From NCBI RefSeq assembly GCF_028640845.1, contig NC_080541.1, forward strand, positions 29,840,435 through 29,904,434: a DNA stretch of 64,000 bases, in the 5' to 3' direction. Numbering within the stretch: position 1 is the stretch's first letter; every line of letters starts with the position of its first letter. This document shows positions 13,361-58,807 of the stretch, piece by piece. The position numbers and the translations under genes are program-made. This DNA is from Ahaetulla prasina (lineage: Eukaryota; Chordata; Lepidosauria; Squamata; Colubridae). The notes beneath the pieces were generated by a model. That model was not told the origin of the DNA. It did no database searches and worked only from the letters and a program-made list of their open reading frames with translations.

Positions 13361-13740
13361 CAGTGGTGAAATGTAAAATTTGTTATAACCGGTTCTGTGG
13401 GCATGGCTTGGTGGGGGTAAGGTGACTGGGTGGGCATGGCCAACTTTTTTTTTTTACTTTTAAAAGAATTTTTTCGGCTGAAGAGGTTGTAGAAAAAATG
13501 CTTTTAAAAGGCTCTGGTGATCCCAGCTGAGCCGCACGAACATCAGAGGGTTTTTTTTTACTTTTAAAAGCATTTTTGGCCGAAGAAAAAATGCTTTTAA
13601 AAGTAAAAAAAAACACCTCTGATGATCACGTGGCTCAGCTGGGGGGGGGCAGGGATTTTTGCTACCGGTTCTCCGAACCATCCACCACCATCACTACCAG
13701 ATTGAGCGAGCCAGTCTGAACCAGGAGCATTTCACCCCTG
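13361..13740. mobile_element. hAT-type MITE with 8-bp TSD
   Basis: A 380-bp element between perfect duplications AGCCTACC (13353-13360 and 13741-13748). Terminal repeats are CAGTGGTGAAATG and, inverted, CAGGGGTGAAATG (12 of 13). Inside it has ACCGGTTCTGTGGGC, TGGCTTGGTGGG and CTACCGGTTCTCCGAAC, shared with the element at 7635-7932, plus an internal inverted repeat around CTTTTAAAAG. It was inserted in the L3 LINE and has no transposase. Confidence 0.9.
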
Positions 13741-13924
13741 AGCCTACCACAGTGCAGTTTCAGAGGAAACAAGCTTTTTCCTGAAATTATGGCACACAAT
13801 TCAGCATATGTCCGTGTTGTCCCTTGGAATCAGAAGGGCACAGGGATAATGAACTAAATTGTGCCTGTGTGAATTCTCTGTGTATACAGATCTCATTGAG
13901 CATCTTGGTTTACCGAAAAGGTCC

Positions 13925-14957
13925 GCAAAGTAGCAAGGCGTATAGAGCGATGGGAGTAAAACAGAGAGTGAAGCCAACCGAGCACAGGTAACAATAAGGG
14001 TGGTGAAGCATAATTATTTATCCACCCTTACTGCATCAGTTTTAGGTAATCAGGTCCCTAGATAGCAGCAGTTTTAGGTAATCAGGTCCCTTCTAGTTAA
14101 AGACAGACCACCTTCAGGGCTCCTATGAGGAATATTCTCAGCACCTGGCAGATAATGTTTCTTGAGTTTACTGTGTTGGACCACTGGCTGGGCAAAAATG
14201 ACCAAGGCATTTATTTATTTATTTATTTTTATTATTTAAATTTCTATACCGCCCTTCTCCCGAAGGACTCAGGGCAGTTTACAGCCAAAATAAAACAATC
14301 AATATAAAAGTTAAAACCAATTTAAAAGCAAAAATTCAAAGTTGGCTGGACCATTTAAAACCAATAAAAACCCCAATTAAAACCATTAGGCCAGTCCTGC
14401 GCAATGAAATAGAAATGTTTTCAGCTCACGTCGAAAGGTCCATAAGTAGCAAGGCGCATAGAGCGATGGGAGTAAGACAGAGAGTGAAGCCGACCGAGCA
14501 CAGGTAACAATAAGGGTGGTGAAGCATAATTATTTATCCACCCTTACTGCATCAGTTTTAGGTAATCAGGTCCCTAGATAGCAGCAGTTTTAGGTAATCA
14601 GGTCCCTTCTAGTTAAAGACAGACCACCTTCAGGGCTCTTATGAGGAATATTCTCAGCACCTGGCAGATAATGTTTCTTGAGTTTACTGTGTTGGACCAC
14701 TGGCTGGGCAAAAATGACCAAGGCATTTATTTATTTATTTATTTTTATTATTTAAATTTCTATACCGCCCTTCTCCCGAAGGACTCAGGGCAGTTTACAG
14801 CCAAAATAAAACAATCAATATAAAAGTTAAAACCAATTTAAAAGCAAAAATTCAAAGTTGGCTGGACCATTTAAAACCAATAAAAACCCCAATTAAAACC
14901 ATTAGGCCAGTCCTGCGCAATGAAATAGAAATGTTTTCAGCTCACGTCGAAAGGTCC
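13925..14957. repeat. 516-bp tandem duplication
   Basis: Two copies, about 13925-14441 and 14442-14957, offset by 516 bp with about five substitutions. Each has 290 bp of L3-like host sequence and the last 235 bp of a CR1 3' end (T/A-rich tail, then the TTCTATACCGCCCTTCTCC motif). Only the second copy continues into the longer CR1. The breakpoints share the microhomology CGAAAGGTCC. A shorter internal tandem, TTTTAGGTAATCAGGTCCCT, occurs twice per copy. Confidence 0.9.
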
Positions 14958-21257: not shown

Positions 21258-21905
21258 TTATTTATTTATTTATTTATTTTTATTATTTATTATTATTTAT
21301 TCATATTTTTATACCGCCCTTCTCCGAAGACTCAGGGCGGTGTACAGCAAATAAAACAACAAAAATCCAAAACAAATTAAAATACTATAACAAGTTTAAA
21401 AATCTAATTCGACTGCTGTATACTTAAAATATTAGCTAAAATTTTTCAAAAGCTAAAACCCTGTTAAAAAACCCGCTAACACCCCCCCCATATTAAAATC
21501 AATCAGGCCAGCCCTGCTTGGTGAAAAAAGAAAGTCTTGAGCTCGCGTTTAAAGGTCTGGAGATCAGGGAGGAGACAGAGTCCCACCGGCAGCTCATTCC
21601 ATAGAGCCGGGGCCCCCACAGAGAACGCTCTTCCCCTGTGGGCCGCCAGCCGACATTGGCTAGCCGACGGCACCCTAAGAAGGCCCTCCCTGTGAGAGCA
21701 TACTGGACGTACCGGACAATGGGAGGTAACTGGCGGCAGCAGGCGGTCCTGTAAATATCCTGGTCCAATGCCATGGAGCGCTTTAAAGGTGATAACCAAC
21801 ACCTTGAAGCGCACCCGGAAGACCACCGGCAACCAGTGCAGCCTGCGCAGGAGAGGTGTTACATGGGAGCTACGAGGAGCTCCCTCAATCCCCCGCGCGG
21901 CGGAT
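21258..21905 (-). mobile_element. CR1 LINE 3' end
   Basis: 5'-truncated CR1. The minus strand (21503-21832) reads VFRVRFKVLVITFKALHGIG and GRAFSVGAPALWNELPVGL, the CR1 ORF2 C terminus, ending at 21503. A 3' untranslated region with TTTTTATACCGCCCTTCTCC and an ATTT-rich tail follows down to 21258. It is 5' truncated near 21905 at CCCGCGCGG. Confidence 0.88.
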
Positions 21906-34519: not shown

Positions 34520-36200
34520 TCTGCTCTGGATATTAAAAAATGCTAGGTACACCATTGCTTTGATTACAATCTTATTTGTACATAATCACCTGAATTAGTG
34601 CCAACGGATAGCAGAAAATTAGATTTCATATCGAGGTTTAGAAAAAGGTATAAGTTGTCTTTTACAAATGATGGCATTGTGTCTTTTCCGCAATGTTCAC
34701 CTCAGTTGCCTTTACGTGAGTTTTACTAATATTCATGAACATGCTATAATTTTTTTCATTATAAGTAAGACCTGATTTTTTAGGATTGTGTGCATATATC
34801 ATGACAGAAATGGACATATATGCTACAGCAGAACAAAGCTAAAAAGCTAATAGCATAACAACTAATATGTAAATATATGGAGTATGCTTTCGGCATATAA
34901 ATAGCAGCTAAAGTAATATAAAATCATACTGAAAAACATCACGCACACGAACAACCAATCTAATCTTCGATCAAAATCGATTTAACCTACATTCTGTTTT
35001 CAACAGTATCCATTCCAGTGTTTCTATAACACATATAAACATGGCACGGCATGAAGGCATGTTGGTGCTGCTCTCCATTATTGTATGTAATCTGATTGTG
35101 AGTGCATCAGAGATGTAATTTCTTACTAGAAGTTTAATAAGGCAACACATACATGTATTTATTTACACAATCCATATTACATTATGTTGCAAGAAGAGAA
35201 TATATATCCTCAAAGAGTGGCTATTAATCAGTGGAGCTTCATCAGATTAGACTCTACAAATTCTAACTCACCAAACTAAAGACAGCATCTTTATAATAGT
35301 TTGTTAAATGTATCACAAAATTCAAGTTTTCACTGGCTGTTCCTAACTGCAAAAACAAAGAACTTTTCCAACCATGACCACAGAGTGCTAACAGTTTGAT
35401 ACATCACTATTTATAGCATTTTATTCCAAATACGAGAGAAAATTAAAACTGTTTTAACCAGAGATAAAATCAACAGTTAATTAATAGTTTAGATTTTTCT
35501 ATTCATTGGTATATCACAAACAATATCCAGTTTTTAACAGTTTCAATGGCATTCTTCAATTTTAACATCCAAAATATAAAAATAAATTAGCTAATTAAGT
35601 TATCACTGAATTTCAGTAGTAATTTTTAACAGAGTTGCTAATATTACTTTATGTATTTATTATTTATAATACAAGAAATATGTCTTCATTAAAATAGGTT
35701 GCAGAAACACAAATATTAGAAGCAGATGGATGGCTCCTAGCAACCCTCTTAATTTCCCCAAATATCTCTCCAATGGGTTGGGAAATCTTTGTTATCAGCT
35801 TTTGTGTCGTAGCAAGTATGTGGATGCAATATATACTTTATTTATTCCTTTAGTAAATTACCATATTTGCCAGAAATCAACATATTTATAATTGTAAATC
35901 AATCATTACAGCACTCATCAAAAATATCAACAAACGCCATTCAGTCTTCCATAATAACCTCAAACCATTTTAAAATGAAGTAATAAAAATAATTCTTATA
36001 GAATAGTCATTATTAAAAAGAAAAGTAATAAAATTAGTAATCATGGTATCATGTATTAATTATTGGACAACTCTCGAAATGCTCTACCTTTATTTACATC
36101 TAGCATGCTGTAACAGATGAAGGAAGTCTCATTTCCAAGAGTAACCTGATCCATGAGAAAGAGGCTACAACAGGAGAATGTCCCAAAGGACATTATTTTT
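34520..36200. other. Intron, no gene seen
   Basis: AT-rich. The stretch 34930-35120 is less AT-rich and could be a conserved non-coding element, but nothing was recognised. Confidence 0.45.
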
Positions 36201-36205
36201 CTTTG

Positions 36206-36334
36206 GAAGACGTTTTGCTTCTCATCCAAGAAGCTTCTTCAAGCTGAAAAAACTTCTTGGATGAGAAGCAAAATGTCTTCAAAAGAAAAAACAAGATAGC
36301 CCAGTTGCCTCCTGAAAAAGCACCTTTGGGACAA
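36206..36334. mobile_element. Penelope-like 3' end with inverted arm
   Basis: Arms at 36206-36241 and 36245-36280 form a 36-bp inverted repeat (GAAGACGTTTTGCTTCTCAT against ATGAGAAGCAAAATGTCTTC) with a 3-nt loop and few mismatches. The right arm continues into CCCAGTTGCCTCCTGAAAAA and GCACCTTTGGGACA, which I associate with the 3' end of vertebrate Penelope-like elements. An inverted partial copy is typical of how these elements insert. Confidence 0.55.
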
Positions 36335-39774: not shown

Positions 39775-39884
39775 TTCTCTCCAGAGTCCCTTTTGGTGGG
39801 AGTTGTGGCAACTGTCTACCCCTGCGTCCTGCCACCGGAGTACTTGATGGGCTTGTTTGGACTGATCCCGAATGAGCATGTGAC
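39775..39884 (-). CDS. RIMS2: RIMS2 coding exon (RIM-BP-binding motif)
   Basis: A 110-nt exon. The minus strand reads G then SHAHSGSVQTSPSSTPVAGR and RGRQLPQLPPKGTLER, ending with one base of the next codon. RQLPQLPPKG is the proline-rich RxxPxxP motif by which RIMs bind the SH3 domains of RIM-BP and so couple to calcium channels. LPQLPPKGTLER is the RIM2 form; RIM1 has a different continuation. The acceptor is ...TGTCCTGTAG|G and the donor AGAA|GTAAGTG, near consensus. The first G completes the Arg codon begun by exon 41372-41545 (AG|G). The final A joins GT of exon 5237-5337 to give Ser. Confidence 0.95.
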
Positions 39885-40655: not shown

Positions 40656-41371
40656 TAATACTGAGATGATGATTTACACAGCCATGAATTTGATGACAGG
40701 CAATAACACAAGAGTATATTTCAATGAGTGAAATGAAATAATAACATCATTGTTACTGATTCTTATAATTCACTATAGAAAAGCAAAGAAGCCATACAAT
40801 AATCTGATTTGGCCAAAATTAGATTAACAAATGTCTTCTCCAACTTCATTCCATTATTTATATAAACAAACTAAATAAATCAACACTGTGTAATCATGAA
40901 TAAAATACATTACAAAAACAAGACAAATGCAAAACATGCACACAGCAAATAAGAGAAAAGAGTGATTAATATATCGAATTAGTGCAAATTTAAGAAACTA
41001 TTTTAAAGTATCATTTGATGTTATGATTATTATTCCACAAGCGATGCCTGATGATCACATTTAATTACTTCTTCTGTAAGAGAAATACATGAGAAATTAT
41101 GAAGTGTTTGAGAATAAGAAATCACGCAGGATTCCTAATAAATGAGAAATCACAAACAAATGTAAGTAATTGTTATTAATTATTGTTAGTAAACAAATTA
41201 CAATGGCAGCCACACCATTATATCCCGATGGAATATAAATAGTGTGTTGAAGTTGGCAGGGTTAGTATCTACAACTACTGGTGATCAGCCAATGATGAAA
41301 GGAAATACTATTGAAGTTTTTGAAAAATAAAAAAGTGAGCTGGTGGGGCAGGATTAATCCGTCTGTTTCAC

Positions 41372-41545
41372 CTCGATAATGCAGGTGAGGGAGGGGCAGA
41401 TCTTCCAGTCATTAATGAAGGCATCGATCTCATGAGGTTTGACTCAGGACGCTCAGTGGATCGGGAGCGGGGGCTGGGCCGCTCTAGCACTGGACGCTGT
41501 TCTGTTGATCTGGATCTTTGATATGGTAGTCTAGGTTCCCAATTC
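41372..41545 (-). CDS. RIMS2: RIMS2 coding exon, proximal copy
   Basis: A 174-nt exon (58 codons). The minus strand reads (AG)G then NWEPRLPYQRSRSTEQRPVL, ERPSPRSRSTERPESNLMRS and MPSLMTGRSAPPSPALS, ending AG. This is the Arg/Ser-rich stretch of the RIM2 C2A-C2B linker, with the strongly conserved LMRSMPSLMTGRSAPPSPAL core. Acceptor CATTACAG|G; donor TCGAG|GTGAAA. Both borders are in phase 2, so the exon can be skipped or repeated without a frame change. It lies in copy 1 of the tandem duplication and is the copy nearer the next exon. Confidence 0.95.
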
Positions 41546-42862
41546 CTGTAATGTTAGTCAAAAAGCAGCTCAATTGACTTTAATCTGTGGTTATGCATTA
41601 TGCCGCAGCACATTGGATTTGGAGCTATCCAACATAAGCTAATTTTAATAACTTTTTAAAGTTTTCTTCTTGCTAATATTAAGTGGGTATAAAGAAGTAT
41701 ACTTCCTTAAAACGGTCATGTGAAGAAAATTATTTAGACAGTTTAATAATGCAGTGGAATAAAATCTATTAATTTTGCATTAAATCGCATTACTATTTTG
41801 GGAAAATTCAAAATTCAAAAGAAAAGGTGCAGTTCTCTTGAAATATTAAACAGATTAATATTTTTTTAAAAAATCATATATTCCATTATCTGTCAGCAGT
41901 TATTTATGGTGGTTCATTTCAACAGGATCACTTAATATGAACAAAGGATTTTTAAAATCCTGAATAACATTTCTCATTTACTGTGTATTAGTTTAACTGT
42001 CAGGTATAACTGTAGCAAGAATTAAACAATTTTAAATGAGAACAAACGTATTTGATATTGAACAAAGTATTTGACATATGCACATATGGCATAAGCTGTA
42101 CTTTTGTGCAAAAAAGATCCAACACATCAGATTCAAGGACATCCAAGAAACCAAATGAAAAATATGAAAAATATGAAAACAATTATTAAAAATTACTGTA
42201 GCAGAAATTAATTTTAGGCAATGGCTGCAAACTGGTTCTATAATATAGCAAGATTTTTACAGTGTGTTATTAAAAGATCCTTACAGTCTGTAAAGTTTTC
42301 TCTCAATAAGGATAACATATTGACTGAGAAAACAATTAAATACTGTCATACATTTATTTTAACTCATGAACTTAGCTTCAACTGAACAGAAAACATTTAA
42401 ATTTAGTATTAAAGAGAGCAAAAGAACACTAGATAGTTGTATTACAGAGAGGTCATAAAATTGCAAAATGTGTTTCAAAAGCTATCCTTTAGTATAGAAT
42501 TGATTTGAATTTTTCATAACTTGTATTTTTTTTCCAGTAAAGCATCATCTAGAGAAACCCAATGCGGGCGGGGGCAGAGAATATCTGATTCAATAAAGTT
42601 TATTTAGGTTTTTTTAAAGCAACTGAAAAATGAGCTAAAATGTTATTGCTTATTTATTTACTGTCATAGGGAAAAACAGTGAGAATCGAATATACACAGA
42701 AGTGATACACGTTCATTTAAAAAAAACCCACGATAAAATAAAATAATATAGAAGAGGCTCTAGAGTCAAATTCTTGCCTGCTGATGCAAATTTCAACAGA
42801 ACCAAATGTAGCTATTTTCATGAAGATATTAATGAACTGATCCTGTGATAAAAATTATATTA

Positions 42863-43249
42863 CAAGTAATCCTTGACTTACAACCATTCCTTTAGTGACC
42901 ATTTGAATGGCACTGAAAATAGTGACTTATTGGTCCTCTCACTCAAAATTGCTGTAATATCCCCACAGTCACATGATCTAAATTTGAGTGCTTGGCAATT
43001 GACATTAATTTAGAATGGTTGCAGGGTCCCGGGGTCATATTATTGCCATTTGCAACCTTCCAGCTGGCTTCCAACAAACAAAGCCAATACGGAGTTGGAT
43101 TTCCTTAATGACTTGCTTAACAAGTGCAGTGATTTGCTTAACCATAGCAAAACAACAACAACAACAACCAGGCATGACTCACTTAAGAACTATTTTGCTT
43201 AGAAACTGAAATTCTGGTTCCAATTGTGGTCACAAGTCGAGGACCACTT
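42863..43249. mobile_element. TA-type MITE in duplication copy 1
   Basis: Ends CAAGTAATCCTTGACTTACA and, inverted, AAGTGGTCCTCGACTTG, with the same internal motifs as the element at 38824-39202. It contains (CAA)n near 43150. Confidence 0.75.
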
Positions 43250-43982
43250 ATACGTCACCTTAAGACCTACTAAAGAGATACTATTAGGCGTTCTAGATAT
43301 AATAAAAAGAACAGTGCAGCAATACGCTAGAGAGCTGTGTCTTCCTTTGAGCATTTTATAAGTAAGACATCAAACCTTGCTAAAGTAAAGGTTTTCCGAT
43401 GAAGAACAAATACCAATATTGATATAGATAACATAGATATAAATAAAATACATAGAACAGTTCTCTATTGCAAAAGTTTAACACTTTCAACTGATCTCTT
43501 TGCAAATCCAAATCAACAGTTAATTAATGTTCCTTTCATTTGATTGTACATGAAGGCCTGACAGAAAAGATCAAAACAATAGTTTCACTTTAAGCTCCAA
43601 ACAGGCAGGCATGTTTGATTGTAAGATCAGCAAAGAAGGGTTAAGTGTCAGAAGGGAAGCCTACCTAGAATCAGGCTTTTAAAGACAGATTTCAATCTGA
43701 TTTAGGATTACCTTCCTAAGTTCCTACCAATAAAACAATTGAGGGTTTTATTGGTAAAAGATTTGGAGTGTCTGTATTCTGAATCTCTGTATTCATAAAA
43801 TAGTTTAAGCACACTAAACTGCATGAGTTGAATTGTATAGCTCGACATACCAATATCAAAGGTGTATAAGGAAGGAGAGATACCTCTGCAACAAGCATAG
43901 GGGTATGCTTTTGAACATTTCCTTTACATGGGGAGAATATTTCCTTTACATGGGTGGAAGGAATATATTTAATTAGAATTTA

Positions 43983-44215
43983 TTTATTTTTTCCTGCTTT
44001 TATTATTTTTACAAAACAATTCAAGGTGGTGAACATACCTAATGCTCTCTTCTCTTTTATTCTCCCCCACAAGCCTATGAAGTAAGATGGACTGAGAGAG
44101 AGAGTGAGTGGCCCAAAATTACCTAGCCAACTTGTATGCCTAAGGTAGTACTAGAATTCACAGACTTCCAGTTTCTAACCTGGTGCCTTCAACCATTAGA
44201 CCAACTGACTCTATT
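43983..44215 (+). mobile_element. SINE-like repeat in duplication copy 1
   Basis: TTCAAGGTGGTGAACATACC, GTGGCCCAAAATTACCTAGC and CCTTCAACCATTAGACCAAC are the landmarks of a common amniote SINE-type repeat with an L2/CR1-like first part. Family name not assigned. Confidence 0.6.
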
Positions 44216-44986
44216 CAGTTGCAAATCTGAACAAGAATGTGGCAACCCTGCAGCAAATTACCAAATGGCAGATAGTTCCCTGAATGAAGGCATTCCAATT
44301 TCTGCAAATACTTCAAATAGTAAGAATAGCTTAGAATACTACTGTTTCATATTTTAATCAGAAGAGTTTGCAAATGAAAAAGTTTATGAGTCTTGAATTA
44401 TCCTCAAACAAATTTACAAAGATTACCTCATATTTTCTTCTGAATCTGTATGCAAATTTTCTGAATGGAAAGCTTGATCTGCCAACATATCCATTGTTTC
44501 ACTTCTTTAATACCAAAACTGAAAAGTAACCTTAACTTGCAATTGGTTGACTAGCTGCAAGGCAGTTTAATGAAAAACAAACAAACACAAAAGTGTTTAT
44601 CAGGGTCCCCAAACATTTTAAAATTTATCTGAAGGAATGGAATATAAATCCACAAGCGATGCCTGATGATCACATTTAATTACTTCTTCTGTAAGAGAAA
44701 TACATGAGAAATTATGAAGTGTTTGAGAATAAGAAATCACGCAGGATTCCTAATAAATGAGAAATCACAAACAAATGTAAGTAATTGTTATTAATTATTG
44801 TTAGTAAACAAATTACAATGGCAGCCACACCATTATATCCCGATGGAATATAAATAGTGTGTTGAAGTTGGCAGGGTTAGTATCTACAACTACTGGTGAT
44901 CAGCCAATGATGAAAGGAAATACTATTGAAGTTTTTGAAAAATAAAAAAGTGAGCTGGTGGGGCAGGATTAATCCGTCTGTTTCAC

Positions 44987-45160
44987 CTCGATAATGCAGG
45001 TGAGGGAGGGGCAGATCTTCCAGTCATTAATGAAGGCATCGATCTCATGAGGTTTGACTCAGGACGCTCAGTGGATCGGGAGCGGGGGCTGGGCCGCTCT
45101 AGCACTGGACGCTGTTCTGTTGATCTGGATCTTTGATATGGTAGTCTAGGTTCCCAATTC
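44987..45160 (-). CDS. RIMS2: RIMS2 coding exon, distal copy
   Basis: Copy of exon 41372-41545 with the same splice sites, phase and 58 codons; I see no difference between the two exon copies. In transcript order it comes first, directly after exon 54927-54989 (CAC AG|G AAT). If both copies are real and spliced in, the protein gains a second 58-residue Arg/Ser-rich block in frame. Confidence 0.9.
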
Positions 45161-46477
45161 CTGTAATGTTAGTCAAAAAGCAGCTCAATTGACTTTAATC
45201 TGTGGTTATGCATTATGCCGCAGCACATTGGATTTGGAGCTATCCAACATAAGCTAATTTTAATAACTTTTTAAAGTTTTCTTCTTGCTAATATTAAGTG
45301 GGTATAAAGAAGTATACTTCCTTAAAACGGTCATGTGAAGAAAATTATTTAGACAGTTTAATAATGCAGTGGAATAAAATCTATTAATTTTGCATTAAAT
45401 CGCATTACTATTTTGGGAAAATTCAAAATTCAAAAGAAAAGGTGCAGTTCTCTTGAAATATTAAACAGATTAATATTTTTTTAAAAAATCATATATTCCA
45501 TTATCTGTCAGCAGTTATTTATGGTGGTTCATTTCAACAGGATCACTTAATATGAACAAAGGATTTTTAAAATCCTGAATAACATTTCTCATTTACTGTG
45601 TATTAGTTTAACTGTCAGGTATAACTGTAGCAAGAATTAAACAATTTTAAATGAGAACAAACGTATTTGATATTGAACAAAGTATTTGACATATGCACAT
45701 ATGGCATAATCTGTACTTTTGTGCAAAAAAGATCCAACACATCAGATTCAAGGACATCCAAGAAACCAAATGAAAAATATGAAAAATATGAAAACAATTA
45801 TTAAAAATTACTGTAGCAGAAATTAATTTTAGGCAATGGCTGCAAACTGGTTCTATAATATAGCAAGATTTTTACAGTGTGTTATTAAAAGATCCTTACA
45901 GTCTGTAAAGTTTTCTCTCAATAAGGATAACATATTGACTGAGAAAACAATTAAATACTGTCATACATTTATTTTAACTCATGAACTTAGCTTCAACTGA
46001 ACAGAAAACATTTAAATTTAGTATTAAAGAGAGCAAAAGAACACTAGATAGTTGTATTACAGAGAGGTCATAAAATTGCAAAATGTGTTTCAAAAGCTAT
46101 CCTTTAGTATAGAATTGATTTGAATTTTTCATAACTTGTATTTTTTTTCCAGTAAAGCATCATCTAGAGAAACCCAATGCGGGCGGGGGCGGAGAATATC
46201 TGATTCAATAAAGTTTATTTAGGTTTTTTTAAAGCAACTGAAAAATGAGCTAAAATGTTATTGCTTATTTATTTACTGTCATAGGGAAAAACAGTGAGAA
46301 TCGAATATACACAGAAGTGATACACGTTCATTTAAAAAAAATCCACGATAAAATAAAATAATATAGAAGAGGCTCTAGAGTCAAATTCTTGCCTGCTGAT
46401 GCAAATTTCAACAGAACCAAATGTAGCTATTTTCATGAAGATATTAATGAACTGATCCTGTGATAAAAATTATATTA

Positions 46478-46866
46478 CAAGTAATCCTTGACTTACAACC
46501 ATTCCTTTAGTGACCATTTGAATGGCACTGAAAATAGTGACTTATTGGTCCTCTCACTCAAAATTGCTGTAATATCCCCACAGTCACATGATCTAAATTT
46601 GAGTGCTTGGCAATTGACATTAATTTAGAATGGTTGCAGGGTCCCGGGGTCATATTATTGCCATTTGCAACCTTCCAGCTGGCTTCCAACAAACAAAGCC
46701 AATACGGAAGTTGGATTTCCTTAATGACTTGCTTAACAAGTGCAGTGATTTGCTTAACCATAGCAAAACAACAACAACAACAACCAGGCATGACTCACTT
46801 AAGAACTATTTTGCTTAGAAACTGAAATTCTGGTTCCAATTGTGGTCACAAGTCGAGGACCACTTA
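46478..46866. mobile_element. TA-type MITE in duplication copy 2
   Basis: Copy of 42863-43249 within the tandem duplication, with one extra base near 46710. Confidence 0.75.
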
Positions 46867-47600
46867 TACGTCACCTTAAGACCTACTAAAGAGATACTAT
46901 TAGGCGTTCTAGATATAATAAAAAGAACAGTGCAGCAATACGCTAGGAGAGCTGTGTCTTCCTTTGAGCATTTTTATAAGTAAGACATCAAACCTTGCTA
47001 AAGTAAAGGTTTTCCGATGAAGAACAAATACCAATATTGATATAGATAACATAGATATAAATAAAATACATAGAACAGTTCTCTATTGCAAAAGTTTAAC
47101 ACTTTCAACTGATCTCTTTGCAAATCCAAATCAACAGTTAATTAATGTTCCTTTCATTTGATTGTACATGAAGGCCTGACAGAAAAGATCAAAACAATAG
47201 TTTCACTTTAAGCTCCAAACAGGCAGGCATGTTTGATTGTAAGATCAGCAAAGAAGGGTTAAGTGTCAGAAGGGAAGCCTACCTAGAATCAGGCTTTTAA
47301 AGACAGATTTCAATCTGATTTAGGATTACCTTCCTAAGTTCCTACCAATAAAACAATTGAGGGTTTTATTGGTAAAAGATTTGGAGTGTCTGTATTCTGA
47401 ATCTCTGTATTCATAAAATAGTTTAAGCACACTAAACTGCATGAGTTGAATTGTATAGCTCGACATACCAATATCAAAGGTGTATAAGGAAGGAGAGATA
47501 CCTCTGCAACAAGCATAGGGGTATGCTTTTGAACATTTCCTTTACATGGGGAGAATATTTCCTTTACATGGGTGGAAGGAATATATTTAATTAGAATTTA

Positions 47601-47833
47601 TTTATTTTTTCCTGCTTTTATTATTTTTACAAAACAATTCAAGGTGGTGAACATACCTAATGCTCTCTTCTCTTTTATTCTCCCCCACAAGCCTATGAAG
47701 TAAGATGGACTGAGAGAGAGAGTGAGTGGCCCAAAATTACCTAGCCAACTTGTATGCCTAAGGTAGTACTAGAATTCACAGACTTCCAGTTTCTAACCTG
47801 GTGCCTTCAACCATTAGACCAACTGACTCTATT
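47601..47833 (+). mobile_element. SINE-like repeat in duplication copy 2
   Basis: Copy of 43983-44215 within the tandem duplication. Confidence 0.6.
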
Positions 47834-48267
47834 CAGTTGCAAATCTGAACAAGAATGTGGCAACCCTGCAGCAAATTACCAAATGGCAGATAGTTCCCTG
47901 AATGAAGGCATTCCAATTTCTGCAAATACTTCAAATAGTAAGAATAGCTTAGAATACTACTGTTTCATATTTTAATCAGAAGAGTTTGCAAATGAAAAAG
48001 TTTATGAGTCTTGAATTATCCTCAAACAAATTTACAAAGATTACCTCATATTTTCTTCTGAATCTGTATGCAAATTTTCTGAATGGAAAGCTTGATCTGC
48101 CAACATATCCATTGTTTCACTTCTTTAATACCAAAACTGAAAAGTAACCTTAACTTGCAATTGGTTGACTAGCTGCAAGGCAGTTTAATGAAAAACAAAC
48201 AAACACAAAAGTGTTTATCAGGGTCCCCAAACATTTTAAAATTTATCTGAAGGAATGGAATATAAAT

Positions 48268-48752
48268 AATAGGAAAAAGTTGGTTTTCTATTGATCTACT
48301 ATCTACTAAGGAGCTTAATATAAAAAAGAGGTCCAGATTTCAAAAAGAAAGACATCCATATAAAGATAAGAGAAAATTGATTTTCTCAGTTATAACTAGC
48401 TATCCTAAACCATTTTGGAGTAGACAATCTCATTTAAAATATTTTGCATTCCTTTTAATTTCTAATCTATTGCTATTACTTCTTGAATTTTAAAAACTTT
48501 CAGAGAAAATTCTTGTTTCATTTTATGTTGAAATGCTTTCCAACAATATAAAGTGAATTTAAGTCCTACCAATTCATTCATAATTTGTAATTTGACTAAT
48601 GACTGAAATCTATGTAAGAATAAAAATGTAAAGTCACAGTTAATTTTTTGCATTATGAAAATTGTTTATACATTCAATTATCAGTTGGTCAAAGATCTAT
48701 ATAATAACAGGAAATAGTACTATATATATTTATACTTTTTAACTGAGTATAT
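48268..48752. other. RIMS2 intron, no feature seen
   Basis: Unique AT-rich sequence between the tandem duplication and the L1-type insertion. Confidence 0.55.
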
Positions 48753-49126
48753 AAAATATTTATAGTTTTTTTTTTTTTTTTTTTTTTGTTCAAAAAGTTT
48801 TTATTAGTCAAAAAAGGTTTATACAAATACATATCAGGTATGGTAAATTTTCATTTTTCTTATCTAAAATAAGAATTTTACTCAAATTTTTTAACACATA
48901 CAACAGCCATAAGGCAAGCAGGTGACACGAAGTAGCAAAGTTTGCAAATTTTAAATACGTAATAAAGAAGAGTCAAGAATAAACAGAATATCGTACAAAA
49001 GAGAATAAGGAAAACCAACACAATCCCAAATATCTTTATCACTTCCTAGTTTTGGATCTCAGAACTCTGGGTTCAGCCTGACCCAACTCCAGGGCGCAAC
49101 AGCGGCAGCCGCTTCAGCCCCATGAT

Positions 49127-49895
49127 CTATAACCTCCCTTCTTCAATTCCTGGGTCATCTGATTCCAGGAAGGCTTTGTGTTCCTCCACATAGGCCGTAG
49201 CCTCCATTGTACTGATTTTTTCGTAATGCCCTCCCGGAAAATCATCAATCCCTCTGGCATCAGCCATCTGAAGCCCACTCCCTTCTGGTACAATTTGCTT
49301 GACAAAAAATAATATTTCTTTCTTTTTTCACGTACCTGTCTGGGAATCTGCCTCAGAATGGCTATCTCCCTGCCCCTGTAAATCAGTGCCCCACTCCTAT
49401 GTTTTCTAAGAATTTCATCTCGTCTCTCTTCTCACAAATTTGACATGAACCTCTCTGGGAACTGCATGCGTGCGTGCATATTGCAATTAACTCTATAAAC
49501 TCGATCCACATCCCAATTCATGAAATCAACACTTCTCCCAAGAAATTCTCCCAACAATTTAGTCACAACATCTCTCAAGTCTTCTTGGTCCACTTCTTCC
49601 AAATTTTGAAACCTAAGGAAATAAGACATTTTATCCATCTGTAGTCCAAGCACAGCATTGCCTGTCGTCTCCTCTCTTTTCTGCACTGCCCGCATTTCAC
49701 CCTCAGACCTTCCACTTTCTGCTTGTTTTCTGCTGAGACTTGTTGAGTATCCTTTAAATCCTTTTGGATAGTCACAATTTCTTCTCTTATTTCCGTTTGG
49801 CCTCTTTGCAAATCATCCAGTTTCTTGTCCATATTGGATAACTTTTCCAGAATTCTCTCCATCTCTCCAGCAGTTGGTCTCTGACCTTTTGCCAT
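49127..49895 (-). pseudogene. L1 ORF1p-like, frameshifted
   Basis: ORF1p is the RNA-binding chaperone of L1 particles. The minus strand starts MAKGQRPTAGEMERILEKLS, followed by a coiled coil (LEKLSNMDKKLDDLQRGQTE, VTIQKDLKDTQQVS). After a frameshift near 49695 comes the RRM-like part (MSYFLRFQNLEEVDQEDLRD, VDRVYRVN). Shifts near 49430 and 49230 precede the C-terminal part (EIAILRQIPRQVREK, GVGFRWLMPEGL), which ends at TAG 49127-49129. The domain order and length fit a full ORF1. At least three frameshifts mean no working product. Confidence 0.85.
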
Positions 49896-50049
49896 TTGAA
49901 AAAAAAAAGAATCAAAATCCTCAGGCAAGCACAGTATCCTTGTAATTTCCTCCGGATCCACCAGGGGGCACTCACAGGAGCAACGAGTCCAGAGTACAGT
50001 TAGTCAACCAGGAAACCGAAGGAAGTGATGTCATCAAAATTCTCATAGT

Positions 50050-50598
50050 GAAGGCGGAAGCTGGGCGCCACCACTGTTCCCCAGAAGGAGGGCCTCAAAC
50101 CTTCCCTCCTAAATTTCTCCATCACCTCTTCTCTCCAGAGCTCCACAAAACCGGTAATCTTCTTATTTTAAGTTCTCCTCTCTCCAAAATAACTCGTGCT
50201 CCTTCCAACCGCAGGGGAGAAAACCCCGCACTCCGGGCACTCCACTCACGTTTACCGATATTCCTTCCTTCTCCTCCTCAATTCTACTCCGTGCCCTGTT
50301 CACCACCAGGCTGCTGCAGTTATAAATCCAATGCCCGGTGTCACGGGCACAGCGGCAGGCGACGACCAAAATAATGGCGGCCTGTGGCCTCGAACCCCGC
50401 CAAGCCTAGGGCCGCGCCAGCATCGGTCCCCACAGTCCTGTATGTCGGCTGGGAGACCCCTGGCGAGCCGTCCGTACGGCAGGTGTCCTTTTCGGAACAC
50501 CTGGCCCCTGAGGGCCTCGGCGGCGGCCGGATTCGGGCGCTGGAGGCAGGAGAAACCTTCCAGACGTCCGTTGCCACTGGATACCGGAAGTCGTCTCC
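50050..50598 (-). promoter_or_regulatory. GC-rich 5' region of the L1-type element
   Basis: About 550 bp of CpG-rich sequence between the 5' target duplication and ORF1, in the place of an L1 5' UTR with internal promoter. Several overlapping open frames here are by-products of GC content. Promoter activity is inferred only. Confidence 0.5.
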
Positions 50599-50615: not shown

Positions 50616-51383
50616 AATGGACTAAAAGTCATTTGGAATTTAGGATTTAGGTAATTGCCAAGTCCTTCAAAAGAACTAAATGACATTAGTTAAAAAATAT
50701 TTTTAGCTAAAATGTCTCATGATAAGAAATGAATTTGCAAAATTTCTTTGCTAATGTTGAAATAAAACAATGGAGATTATCTTGAGCTTTACATTATTTA
50801 GATTATACAGAAGTAGAAAATTGCAGACACAAAAGAATAAGTAGAACAAAGTTGAATTCATCAAGGCCAAAGTTTTTAAAGTATAGACTCTTAAACTAAA
50901 CTAACAGGAACCACAAAGATGAAACAATAGAAACAATTCATTGCTTTCCAAAAATATTTATCTGCCTTTCTTTTGCACTGCATTTTGTTTTCTGTGCATG
51001 ATACCTAGCATATATATGTTACATTCAAATTAAACAATAAAAACAATGAGTGTCAAATAAAAACATTAAAACGCAGCAAATTATGGCGCATTTTAATGAT
51101 CACACACATACAGCGTTCTCTATTTCTACAGACAATGGAAGCACTACAAGAGAAAACACACAAATTATGCCTAGGAGTCACAAGCTTAATCTAACCCAAA
51201 TACTTTTTACTGGGAATACCTGTCAGTTTCTGGGGAAGACTGTTGGATTTCAATCCCTGGACATGCTATTCTTCTATTAGCTATTGGAATTTTGCTGGTG
51301 GTCACAGATATAAGATAACCTGTTAGCACAATGTTAATAACTACTGGTATAAACAAATTTCTGAAGTTAACCAACTGATAAGC
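50616..51383. other. RIMS2 intron, no feature seen
   Basis: AT-rich intron between the L1-type insertion and a SINE. Confidence 0.55.
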
Positions 51384-54926: not shown

Positions 54927-54989
54927 CTGTGATTTTCAGCTGTACCATTGACTACATGATCTGCCCATGAACTTGCACCATTGTAATAC
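54927..54989 (-). CDS. RIMS2: RIMS2 coding exon, 63 nt
   Basis: The minus strand reads (AG)G then YYNGASSWADHVVNGTAENH, ending AG. Acceptor TTGCAAAG|G; donor CACAG|GTGAGTAA, which is close to consensus. The length is a multiple of three and both borders are phase 2, matching the neighbouring exons exactly. I identify it by splice sites, phase and position rather than by remembered sequence. It joins to NWEPRLPYQ of the 174-nt exon. Probably a cassette exon, as many in the RIM linker are. Confidence 0.75.
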
Positions 54990-55701: not shown

Positions 55702-57729
55702 TACCTAATGCTGGAAATAAAATAAAGTCTTCCCATCAGCAGAACAACTCTGAGTACAGACTTTGTTTTTGTCTAGGTAAATTTATTTATTAAACAAATT
55801 TGCCCAATAAATCTGATGGCGATATGCATACTGTTGTAAATAATAGCAGCAACAAGAATAGTAAAGTTATAAAATTGCCAATATCTATAAAAGAAGTAAA
55901 CCGTACAGAAATTAAATATATTATATGACAGGTAGGCTTTATATAGCATCCTTGACCATTTTTAAGACCACCCAATGTAATGAATTATATTAGTCTTAGA
56001 GATGAGCAAACAGTTCAAATTTAATCACCTTGGGTATTAAATAGATAGTTCAAGCTGCACCAGAAGTGTTCCAATCTTATAGAGTATTCCACTCACAAAA
56101 AAAAAACATTTCAAGATCAGATACATTTGAAATAGTTACAAAATCAACGAAAAGTGAAAGCAGCCTGTTTTTAGCTCAAATTGGTTTTAATGGAAAACAT
56201 TTTGCACACTTCTGATTAGCCTTAATCATCCTGAAAGTGCTTGTTCTCCTATAGTATCTACAGTATGTTAAACTAAATTAAGATTGCCATCATCTGTGGC
56301 GGATCTGAAGTTGATAAATCCGTACTCTATAAGTCCATGTTTACTATCTTCTTAAAAATTCTTAAATATATGTATTATTTACACATCTATCTATCTATAA
56401 GTAAATACCTTTCGAGAGCAGGGGAAATAAATGTGTCATCAACATATGTATTAGGCTTTCTTCCCTCCTTCCTACTCCTCCTGAACATAAAATAAACAGT
56501 AAAGATATTTTAGAACAGCCTTGCATACTTCTGCTGATGCATGATAATGGCCAGCAAATATCAAGCTACTTTTAGCACAAGGCAAAGTAAAAATAATTTG
56601 TGTCCTGAAAACATCTATTTTTCAAATAATTTCATATTCAGACAAGACTCATATGCCTGTAATGGCCTTACATTCAACAACTATGTTAAGACATTTTATG
56701 TCCCAACTAACAAAAGCAATGATGGCAAGACTTTCATAAATTCAATCATGTGAACTGGCATGTGAACAGTCAACATATGTAGTGAAAAATATCCAACAAA
56801 GTGAAATCACGACATGAGGTAATCATGAACACTTATCTCTGAATGTAGACTGATGGTCGATTCACCAAGTCAAGCCAATTTTTGTAAACTTTTAAAGATT
56901 TGGGAAAATGAAATATTCATTTCCAACTATTCAAGTAATGACTTCTGGTTCCAAGCCTCTCACTAAAATGTTCAGCTTAGTTCCTTTTTATGCTTAGCTA
57001 TTAAGTCAGTCAACCTTGAAGACTATAAGAGTGGATGGGGTGAAGGCAACATTAAAATGCTACTGCACCTAATATTCAACATTACTTATTAGGGATGTTA
57101 CAGGGTTGTTGTTGTTTTTCAAATTAAATAATACAATTAACCAAACCAGAATCTGGTATAGCACAAAGGGGAGTGTGGATATCTTTTTCAAAACATTCTG
57201 TGGCTTAAAAGTAGTATATAAAAAGTATGAATATGGGAATGATGGATTATAGGTATAATACTAGCCAACAGGATGTTCTTTCAGTATAAGCTGAGTGTTG
57301 TCCAAATTGCATTCTTACTTATGGCCAGAAATGAGGCCATGATAATTTATAATTTAATGATTTTTAATTTAGATTACAGAAATCACTCTATATGGAACTG
57401 CCATCGAAAAATATTCAATAAGTTCAGCTAATGCAAATGCTCCAAGTAGATTTTAATCTATGATGCCCTTTTAGGCAATGTAACTATCAATTGTAGAACA
57501 ATTTAAATGCTTTTTGTTTCTGAGCAGATCCAAGATACTGATTTAGTTGTATAAATCCTTAAAGATGTTACATCCAAGCTACCTAAAAGTTGACAACTTC
57601 ATTTTCAAGTTGTAGATAATTTCTGATCTACACTGGAATTACAACAACCATCAGCCACAGAAATTATTTATTTATTATATGTTTAATAAATTAGACTTTA
57701 TTGTTTGTGTATGAAAATACTACTGAAGC
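55702..57729. other. RIMS2 intron, no gene seen
   Basis: AT-rich intron. The 70-codon frame at 56541-56753 shows no family resemblance. Confidence 0.55.
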
Positions 57730-58699: not shown

Positions 58700-58807
58700 C
58701 TCTCAAACTCATAGTAAGCACCCTCAGAATAGGTACGGCACATCCTATGCGATCGAAGTAATCTGATTGCATCTTCACAAAAGTTAGGATACAATGAGTG
58801 ATCCTTG
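58700..58807 (-). CDS. RIMS2: RIMS2 coding exon, 108 nt
   Basis: The minus strand reads C then KDHSLYPNFCEDAIRLLRSH and RMCRTYSEGAYYEFE, ending AG. The acceptor TATGTTTTGGCAG|C is good; the donor GAGAG|GTATAA is acceptable. 36 codons, phase 2 on both sides. It completes the Ser codon from exon 60346-60411 (AG|C) and gives Arg with the next exon (AG|G). The assignment rests on phase, splice sites and order; I cannot confirm the sequence from memory. Confidence 0.72.

What the first reader, a model, noticed from the sequence alone, without database searches (positions are those of the whole stretch)
41035..48267. Tandem 3.6-kb duplication doubles an in-frame RIMS2 exon
Two head-to-tail copies (3615 and 3618 bp, about 99.8 percent identical by eye) each contain the same 174-nt RIMS2 exon with intact splice sites. 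The exon is phase 2 on both sides, so including both copies would add 58 residues of the Arg/Ser-rich linker without a frameshift. With six or so differences in 3.6 kb, it is either a very recent duplication or two haplotypes placed in series by the assembler. A real duplication would be a lineage-specific change in a synaptic scaffold.
Basis: partly seen in the sequence, partly recalled or inferred. Interest (0 to 1): 0.78.

Follow-up and report, generated by a model that had tools for sequence, protein, structure and literature searches.

The report
Tandem duplicated exons in snake RIMS2
A 3.6-kb stretch of a snake's RIMS2 gene, which encodes a synapse scaffold protein, appears twice in a row with two complete exons in each copy; it looks like a very recent tandem duplication, but without sequencing reads an assembly error cannot be excluded.

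Summary
Two head-to-tail copies (41034-44649 and 44649-48267, sharing 1 bp) differ by 3 substitutions and 3 one-base indels. The window lies inside RIMS2, minus strand, of a snake. Transcribed order is A-B-A-B. All nine splice combinations tried stay open; B-B adds 58 residues, A-B-A-B adds 84. None of 188 proteins fetched has B twice; five other snake species have it once, so the doubling is derived. Real or artefact? For real: a gap-free join inside at least 150 kb without gaps, no third copy found in the genome, and older tandem duplications nearby. For artefact: 0.083% divergence also fits two alleles, and the assembly shows leftover run-length errors. I lean to a real, very young, perhaps polymorphic duplication (about 0.65). 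Whether both copies are spliced into mRNA is untested. It is a new member of a known kind (tandem exon duplication), of moderate interest.

The parts
41034..44649 (.). copy 1 of the duplicated unit
44649..48267 (.). copy 2 of the duplicated unit (shares base 44649 with copy 1: 1-bp microhomology)
41372..41545 (-). RIMS2 exon B, copy 1 (174 nt, phase 2-2, 58 residues)
44987..45160 (-). RIMS2 exon B, copy 2 (identical)
44427..44504 (-). RIMS2 cassette exon A, copy 1 (78 nt, phase 2-2, 26 residues)
   Evidence: tblastn with lizard RIMS2; boundaries
48045..48122 (-). RIMS2 cassette exon A, copy 2 (identical)
39775..39884 (-). next RIMS2 exon downstream (D, 110 nt), holds the RQLPQLPPK stretch; not duplicated
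51220..51294 (-). RIMS2 exon E5 (75 nt), upstream of the duplication
54927..54989 (-). RIMS2 exon E4 (63 nt)
56409..56480 (-). RIMS2 exon E3 (72 nt)
58700..58807 (-). RIMS2 exon E2 (108 nt)
48255..48268 (+). 14-bp word at the right breakpoint, also at 41228-41241 (194 bp inside the left breakpoint)

Best explanation
A real, very young direct tandem duplication inside RIMS2 of a snake, possibly still polymorphic or heterozygous in the sequenced animal. Both breakpoints are intronic and the join has 1 bp of microhomology, which end joining or replication template switching could leave (mechanism inferred). Each unit carries exons A and B with their own splice sites (shown). Exons E2, E3, E4, E5, A and B all have lengths divisible by three and joined in frame in every combination tried (shown in silico), so a duplication of A and B keeps the frame. 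Inferred: the commonest transcript of the duplicated allele carries B-B, i.e. 58 extra residues in the Arg/Ser/Pro-rich linker before C2B; A-B-A-B (84 extra) is possible if exon A is used in this snake. The RIM-BP-binding stretch in exon D stays single, so I expect a longer linker and a mild effect, not a new binding domain (inferred). The confidence given is for the duplication being real; real and also spliced as B-B I put at about 0.45.
For: Gap-free join; the only N run in 284 kb is 107 kb away, and at least 149,969 bases around the window are gap-free, whereas Ko et al. 2022 found false duplications most often separated by a gap and did not find this for true ones (passages and section 7). 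The unit is found at two places in the own genome, the other 39 listed matches being 69-78% repeats; the first 495 bases of the right flank match only their own place. So no retained second haplotype of the locus was found. Older direct duplications lie nearby: 21 substitutions in 1665, 12 in 1068 and 6 in 516 aligned bases, so tandem duplication recurs in this region. Both exons are intact and identical, and nine of nine splice combinations are open. Five other snake species have exon B once, which makes the doubling derived.
Against: No reads, so depth and spanning were not tested. Three substitutions in 3616 bases fit two alleles if heterozygosity is about 0.1% or less (P of 3 or fewer 0.51 at 0.1%, 0.04 at 0.22%). 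The three one-base indels look like leftover consensus errors, which occur in other repeat pairs here too (4 substitutions with 5 indels, 8 with 9). All six differences lie in the middle 1.26 kb (P 0.022), which a heterozygous bubble with identical ends would also give. The breakpoint word at 48255-48268 is not explained by the mechanism named.
Confidence: 0.65

Rival explanations
1. Assembly artefact: two alleles, or two noisy versions of one sequence, were placed in series, and any gap between them was closed.
For: Divergence (3 substitutions in 3616) is within what low heterozygosity gives. The assembly carries leftover run-length errors. False duplications remained at 0.3-2.3% of the sequence in three Vertebrate Genomes Project assemblies, 61-92% of them on the same scaffold (Ko et al. 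2022, section 6).
Against: No gap at the join and none for at least 107 kb to the left; no extra haplotype contig found for the unit or for the first 495 bases of the right flank. Ko et al. report more heterozygosity than average in false duplications (section 7); here the copies differ by only 0.083%, below the genome averages of their three species (0.22-0.95%), although those are other species.
Confidence: 0.33
2. The duplication is real but nearly silent: only one copy of B is spliced into most transcripts, the other being skipped, so the protein is unchanged.
For: The linker is rich in cassette exons: listed squamate records differ in whether they carry A and E5. Exon B's donor reads GAG|gtgaaa, without G at +5 (that this is weak is recalled).
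Against: The two B copies and their splice signals are identical, so the sequence gives no reason to prefer one. B is present in all five snake records checked one by one, though they were found by searching with B.
Confidence: 0.2

Closest known systems
Tandem exon duplication (Ivanov and Pervouchine 2022, PMC9013439; abstract and outline seen)
   Same: Whole exons copied head to tail within one gene, with their splice sites.
   Different: Here two consecutive exons are copied together and the copies are still 99.8% identical; expression is not shown.
False heterotype or homotype duplication in genome assemblies (Ko et al. 2022, PMC9516828; abstract, passages, sections 6 and 7 seen)
   Same: Near-identical adjacent copies, some of them holding exons.
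   Different: They found false pairs most often separated by a gap; here there is none. Depth and linked-read tests could not be made.
Zinc-finger amplification in teleost Piccolo (PMC3484663; search listing with start of abstract only)
   Same: Lineage-limited internal repetition in a presynaptic scaffold gene.
   Different: There a zinc-finger domain is extensively amplified; here a linker segment is doubled once.

Membership tests
Tandem exon duplication | At least one whole exon with its splice sites repeated head to tail in the same gene and orientation | tested here: met
   Exons A and B, both copies identical, same strand
Tandem exon duplication | Copies present in the organism's DNA rather than only in the assembly | not testable with these tools
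   No reads; indirect evidence only
Tandem exon duplication | Copies expressed | not testable with these tools
   No RNA data
False assembly duplication | Gap between the copies on the same scaffold | tested here: not met
   No N in the window; nearest N run 107 kb away. A gap closed later without trace cannot be excluded.
False assembly duplication | Half read depth over each copy, discordant read pairs | not testable with these tools
   No reads
False assembly duplication | Divergence at the level of alleles | tested here: inconclusive
   0.083% fits alleles only if heterozygosity is low; this animal's heterozygosity is unknown
Mutually exclusive exons | A frame or spacing barrier that forbids including both copies | tested here: not met
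   Both exons are divisible by three, combinations are open, and by the coordinates the introns between them are 482 to 2884 nt; RNA pairing was not tested

The most novel reading that the evidence does not exclude
A snake lineage has recently lengthened the RIM2 linker by doubling two consecutive symmetric exons (A-B-A-B, up to 84 residues), giving RIM2 isoforms with repeated Arg/Ser-rich and RSAPPSP segments (an RxxPxxP-like pattern, recalled and untested) just before the RIM-BP-binding stretch, as a segregating or fixed variant that changes how the active zone is built.
Probability: 0.2. Interest if true: 0.55.

Novelty: new member of a known kind. Interest (0 to 1): 0.36.

Why it matters
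If real, it is an exon duplication caught almost at birth: 0.083% divergence, roughly 0.2 million years at an assumed (recalled) 2e-9 substitutions per site per year. It lies in a synaptic scaffold whose linker is built of exons that can be copied without a frameshift. One could then watch how identical fresh exons are spliced before regulation has evolved. If it is an artefact, RIMS2 gene models from this assembly will carry a false insertion of 58 to 84 residues.

Tried and rejected
Rfam scan of the window: 0 matches at gathering scores. Simple microhomology joining at the 14-bp word was considered as the mechanism and rejected: it would have removed the 194 bp that are retained. My first splice model joined exon E2 straight to exon B; snake relatives showed exons E3, E4 and E5 between them, so it was replaced. 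A protein search of the own genome for other copies of exon B was asked for seven times and never answered. Papers: the searches 'RIMS2' + 'exon duplication' (2 papers) and 'RIMS2' + 'snake' (1 paper), seen as listings, showed no report of this duplication; searches on SRPK2 and RIM1 and on RIM2 splicing gave nothing I rely on beyond two papers read in passages. A search on tandem-duplication breakpoints was seen as a listing only and is not used.

Full report
What is there. Self-comparison of the window gives one large direct repeat. Extending identity to its limits puts copy 1 at 41034-44649 and copy 2 at 44649-48267, with a 1-bp overlap (T) at the join. Inside the copies there are six differences: three substitutions (two transitions, one transversion) and three one-base run-length indels, copy 1 being shorter each time. 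All six lie in the middle 1.26 kb (P 0.022 for six random points).

The gene. A 188-residue query with exon B twice found 32 proteins among 5458 candidates, the best ones named regulating synaptic membrane exocytosis protein 2. A search reaching longer proteins listed squamate RIMS2. Mapping five of these (Crotalus tigris, Python, Sceloporus, Zootoca, Sphaerodactylus) onto the window plus 200 kb of its own genome to the left gives an ordered run of exons on the minus strand, ending about 65.3 kb left of the window start. Exon B carries PES as in Crotalus, Python, Thamnophis and Pituophis; the eight lizard and gecko records printed have PDS. RSHRM is shared with Crotalus (Python has RSRTM), and AENHR and TLDIEERN with Thamnophis.

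A second exon. Of the five proteins mapped, the three lizard ones with this segment also match an exon inside the unit, at 59-73% identity, in both copies. This exon A (SETMDMLADQAFHSENLHTDSEENM plus a split codon) is 78 nt, at 44427-44504 and 48045-48122, phase 2 on both sides, with AG and GT at its ends but no clear pyrimidine tract. In lizard records it stands directly before exon B, while a Gekko japonicus record lacks it, so it is a cassette exon. It is absent from five snake records checked one by one (P0033, P0035, P0144, P0186, P0187) and from the stretch shown of a sixth, P0034. It may be little used or decaying in snakes. Transcribed order here is A-B-A-B.

Frame. E2 (108 nt), E3 (72), E4 (63), E5 (75), A (78) and B (174) are divisible by three; D (110) is not. 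Nine of nine splice combinations tried, among them B-B, A-B-B, B-A-B and A-B-A-B, translate without a stop; B-B adds 58 residues and A-B-A-B 84.

Relatives. In the two searches with double-exon queries at full-protein length, 7998 candidates each were scored and the best 120 listed; the best scores, 235 and 215 bits, belong to proteins with one copy. A protein with both copies should have ranked above them (inference). Of the 188 proteins fetched over three searches, 176 hold the exon-B word RSMPSL once, 12 not at all and none twice; an exon-B BLASTP on the first 152 found no protein with two matches of 35 residues or more. Limits: candidates were restricted by length and to those sharing most words, and near-identical proteins are clustered. 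Five other snake species (six records) have B once: Crotalus tigris, C. adamanteus (a model lacking the first 11 residues of B), Python bivittatus, Thamnophis sirtalis and Pituophis catenifer annectens. The doubling is therefore derived.

Real or artefact. The window lies at C3:29840435-29904434 of a 1.77-Gb, 745-contig genome. The unit is found at two places; the other 39 listed matches are 69-78% repeats (40 of 9491 first-look candidates were scored). The first 495 bases of the right flank match only their own place; the rest of the query is a repeat with many copies. The only N run in 284 kb is 112 bases, 107 kb left of the unit; at least 149,969 bases holding the window are gap-free. Ko et al. 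[quoted passage not shown]

On the other side, leftover run-length errors are plain in this assembly: other repeat pairs show 4 substitutions with 5 indels and 8 with 9, so the three indels are probably errors. Three substitutions fit alleles if heterozygosity is about 0.1% or lower (P of 3 or fewer 0.51), less well at 0.22% (P 0.04). Other direct duplications nearby (1.68 kb, 21 substitutions in 1665; 1.08 kb, 12 in 1068; 516 bp, 6 in 516, two of them at its edge) are more diverged (Fisher P 2e-8 for the first and 2e-4 for the last against this one). They show that tandem duplication recurs here, at other ages. One sample of 284 kb gives no genome-wide rate. I put a real duplication at about 0.65.

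Breakpoint oddity. The right breakpoint falls within a 14-bp word that also stands 194 bp inside the left breakpoint. For this one comparison 0 of 40000 random pairs reach 13 bp; over eight comparisons 10 of 20000 do. The test was chosen after seeing the word. A simple join at this word would have removed the 194 bp, which are present, so it does not explain the join.

What it would do. The RIM2 peptide tested for binding to RIM-binding-protein SH3 domains (GRQLPQLPPKGT, PMC4536467, passages) lies in exon D and is not doubled. RIM1 is described with three PxxP motifs that act with RIM-BP to cluster calcium channels (PMC10634917, passages). Exon B adds Arg/Ser-rich sequence and one RSAPPSP stretch that fits a general RxxPxxP pattern (recalled, untested). 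A longer, more basic linker is the likely result; this is inference.

Noticed in passing
13917-14957: A second direct tandem duplication (516-bp unit, about 1% diverged) with AAAGGTCC at both edges and at the join; part of it resembles 21272-21890, so it is probably inside a repeat.
   Followed up: partly
48766-50268: A LINE-like element on the right flank, 0.5 kb from the duplication, with 39 listed copies at 95-99% identity elsewhere in the genome; the frames look like an L1 ORF1 (recalled).
   Followed up: no
G000:C3 about 29,810,227-29,813,573 (L025-L026) and 29,829,846-29,832,441 (L027-L028): Two further direct duplications left of the window: 1.68 kb head to tail (21 substitutions in 1665) and 1.08 kb about 0.45 kb apart (12 in 1068).
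   Followed up: partly
L009-L028, for example pairs at 29,687,121/29,692,002 and 29,701,418/29,706,326 of C3: LTR-like pairs about 4.9 kb apart in which one-base run-length indels are as frequent as substitutions (5 to 4 and 9 to 8), pointing to leftover consensus errors in this assembly.
   Followed up: partly
13522-13643 and 36196-36290: Two self-complementary stretches (122 bp at 85%, 95 bp at 90%) seen in the self-BLAST.
   Followed up: no
44427-44504 and 48045-48122: RIMS2 exon A keeps an open frame in this snake but is missing from the snake RIMS2 records seen; it may be going out of use in snakes.
   Followed up: partly
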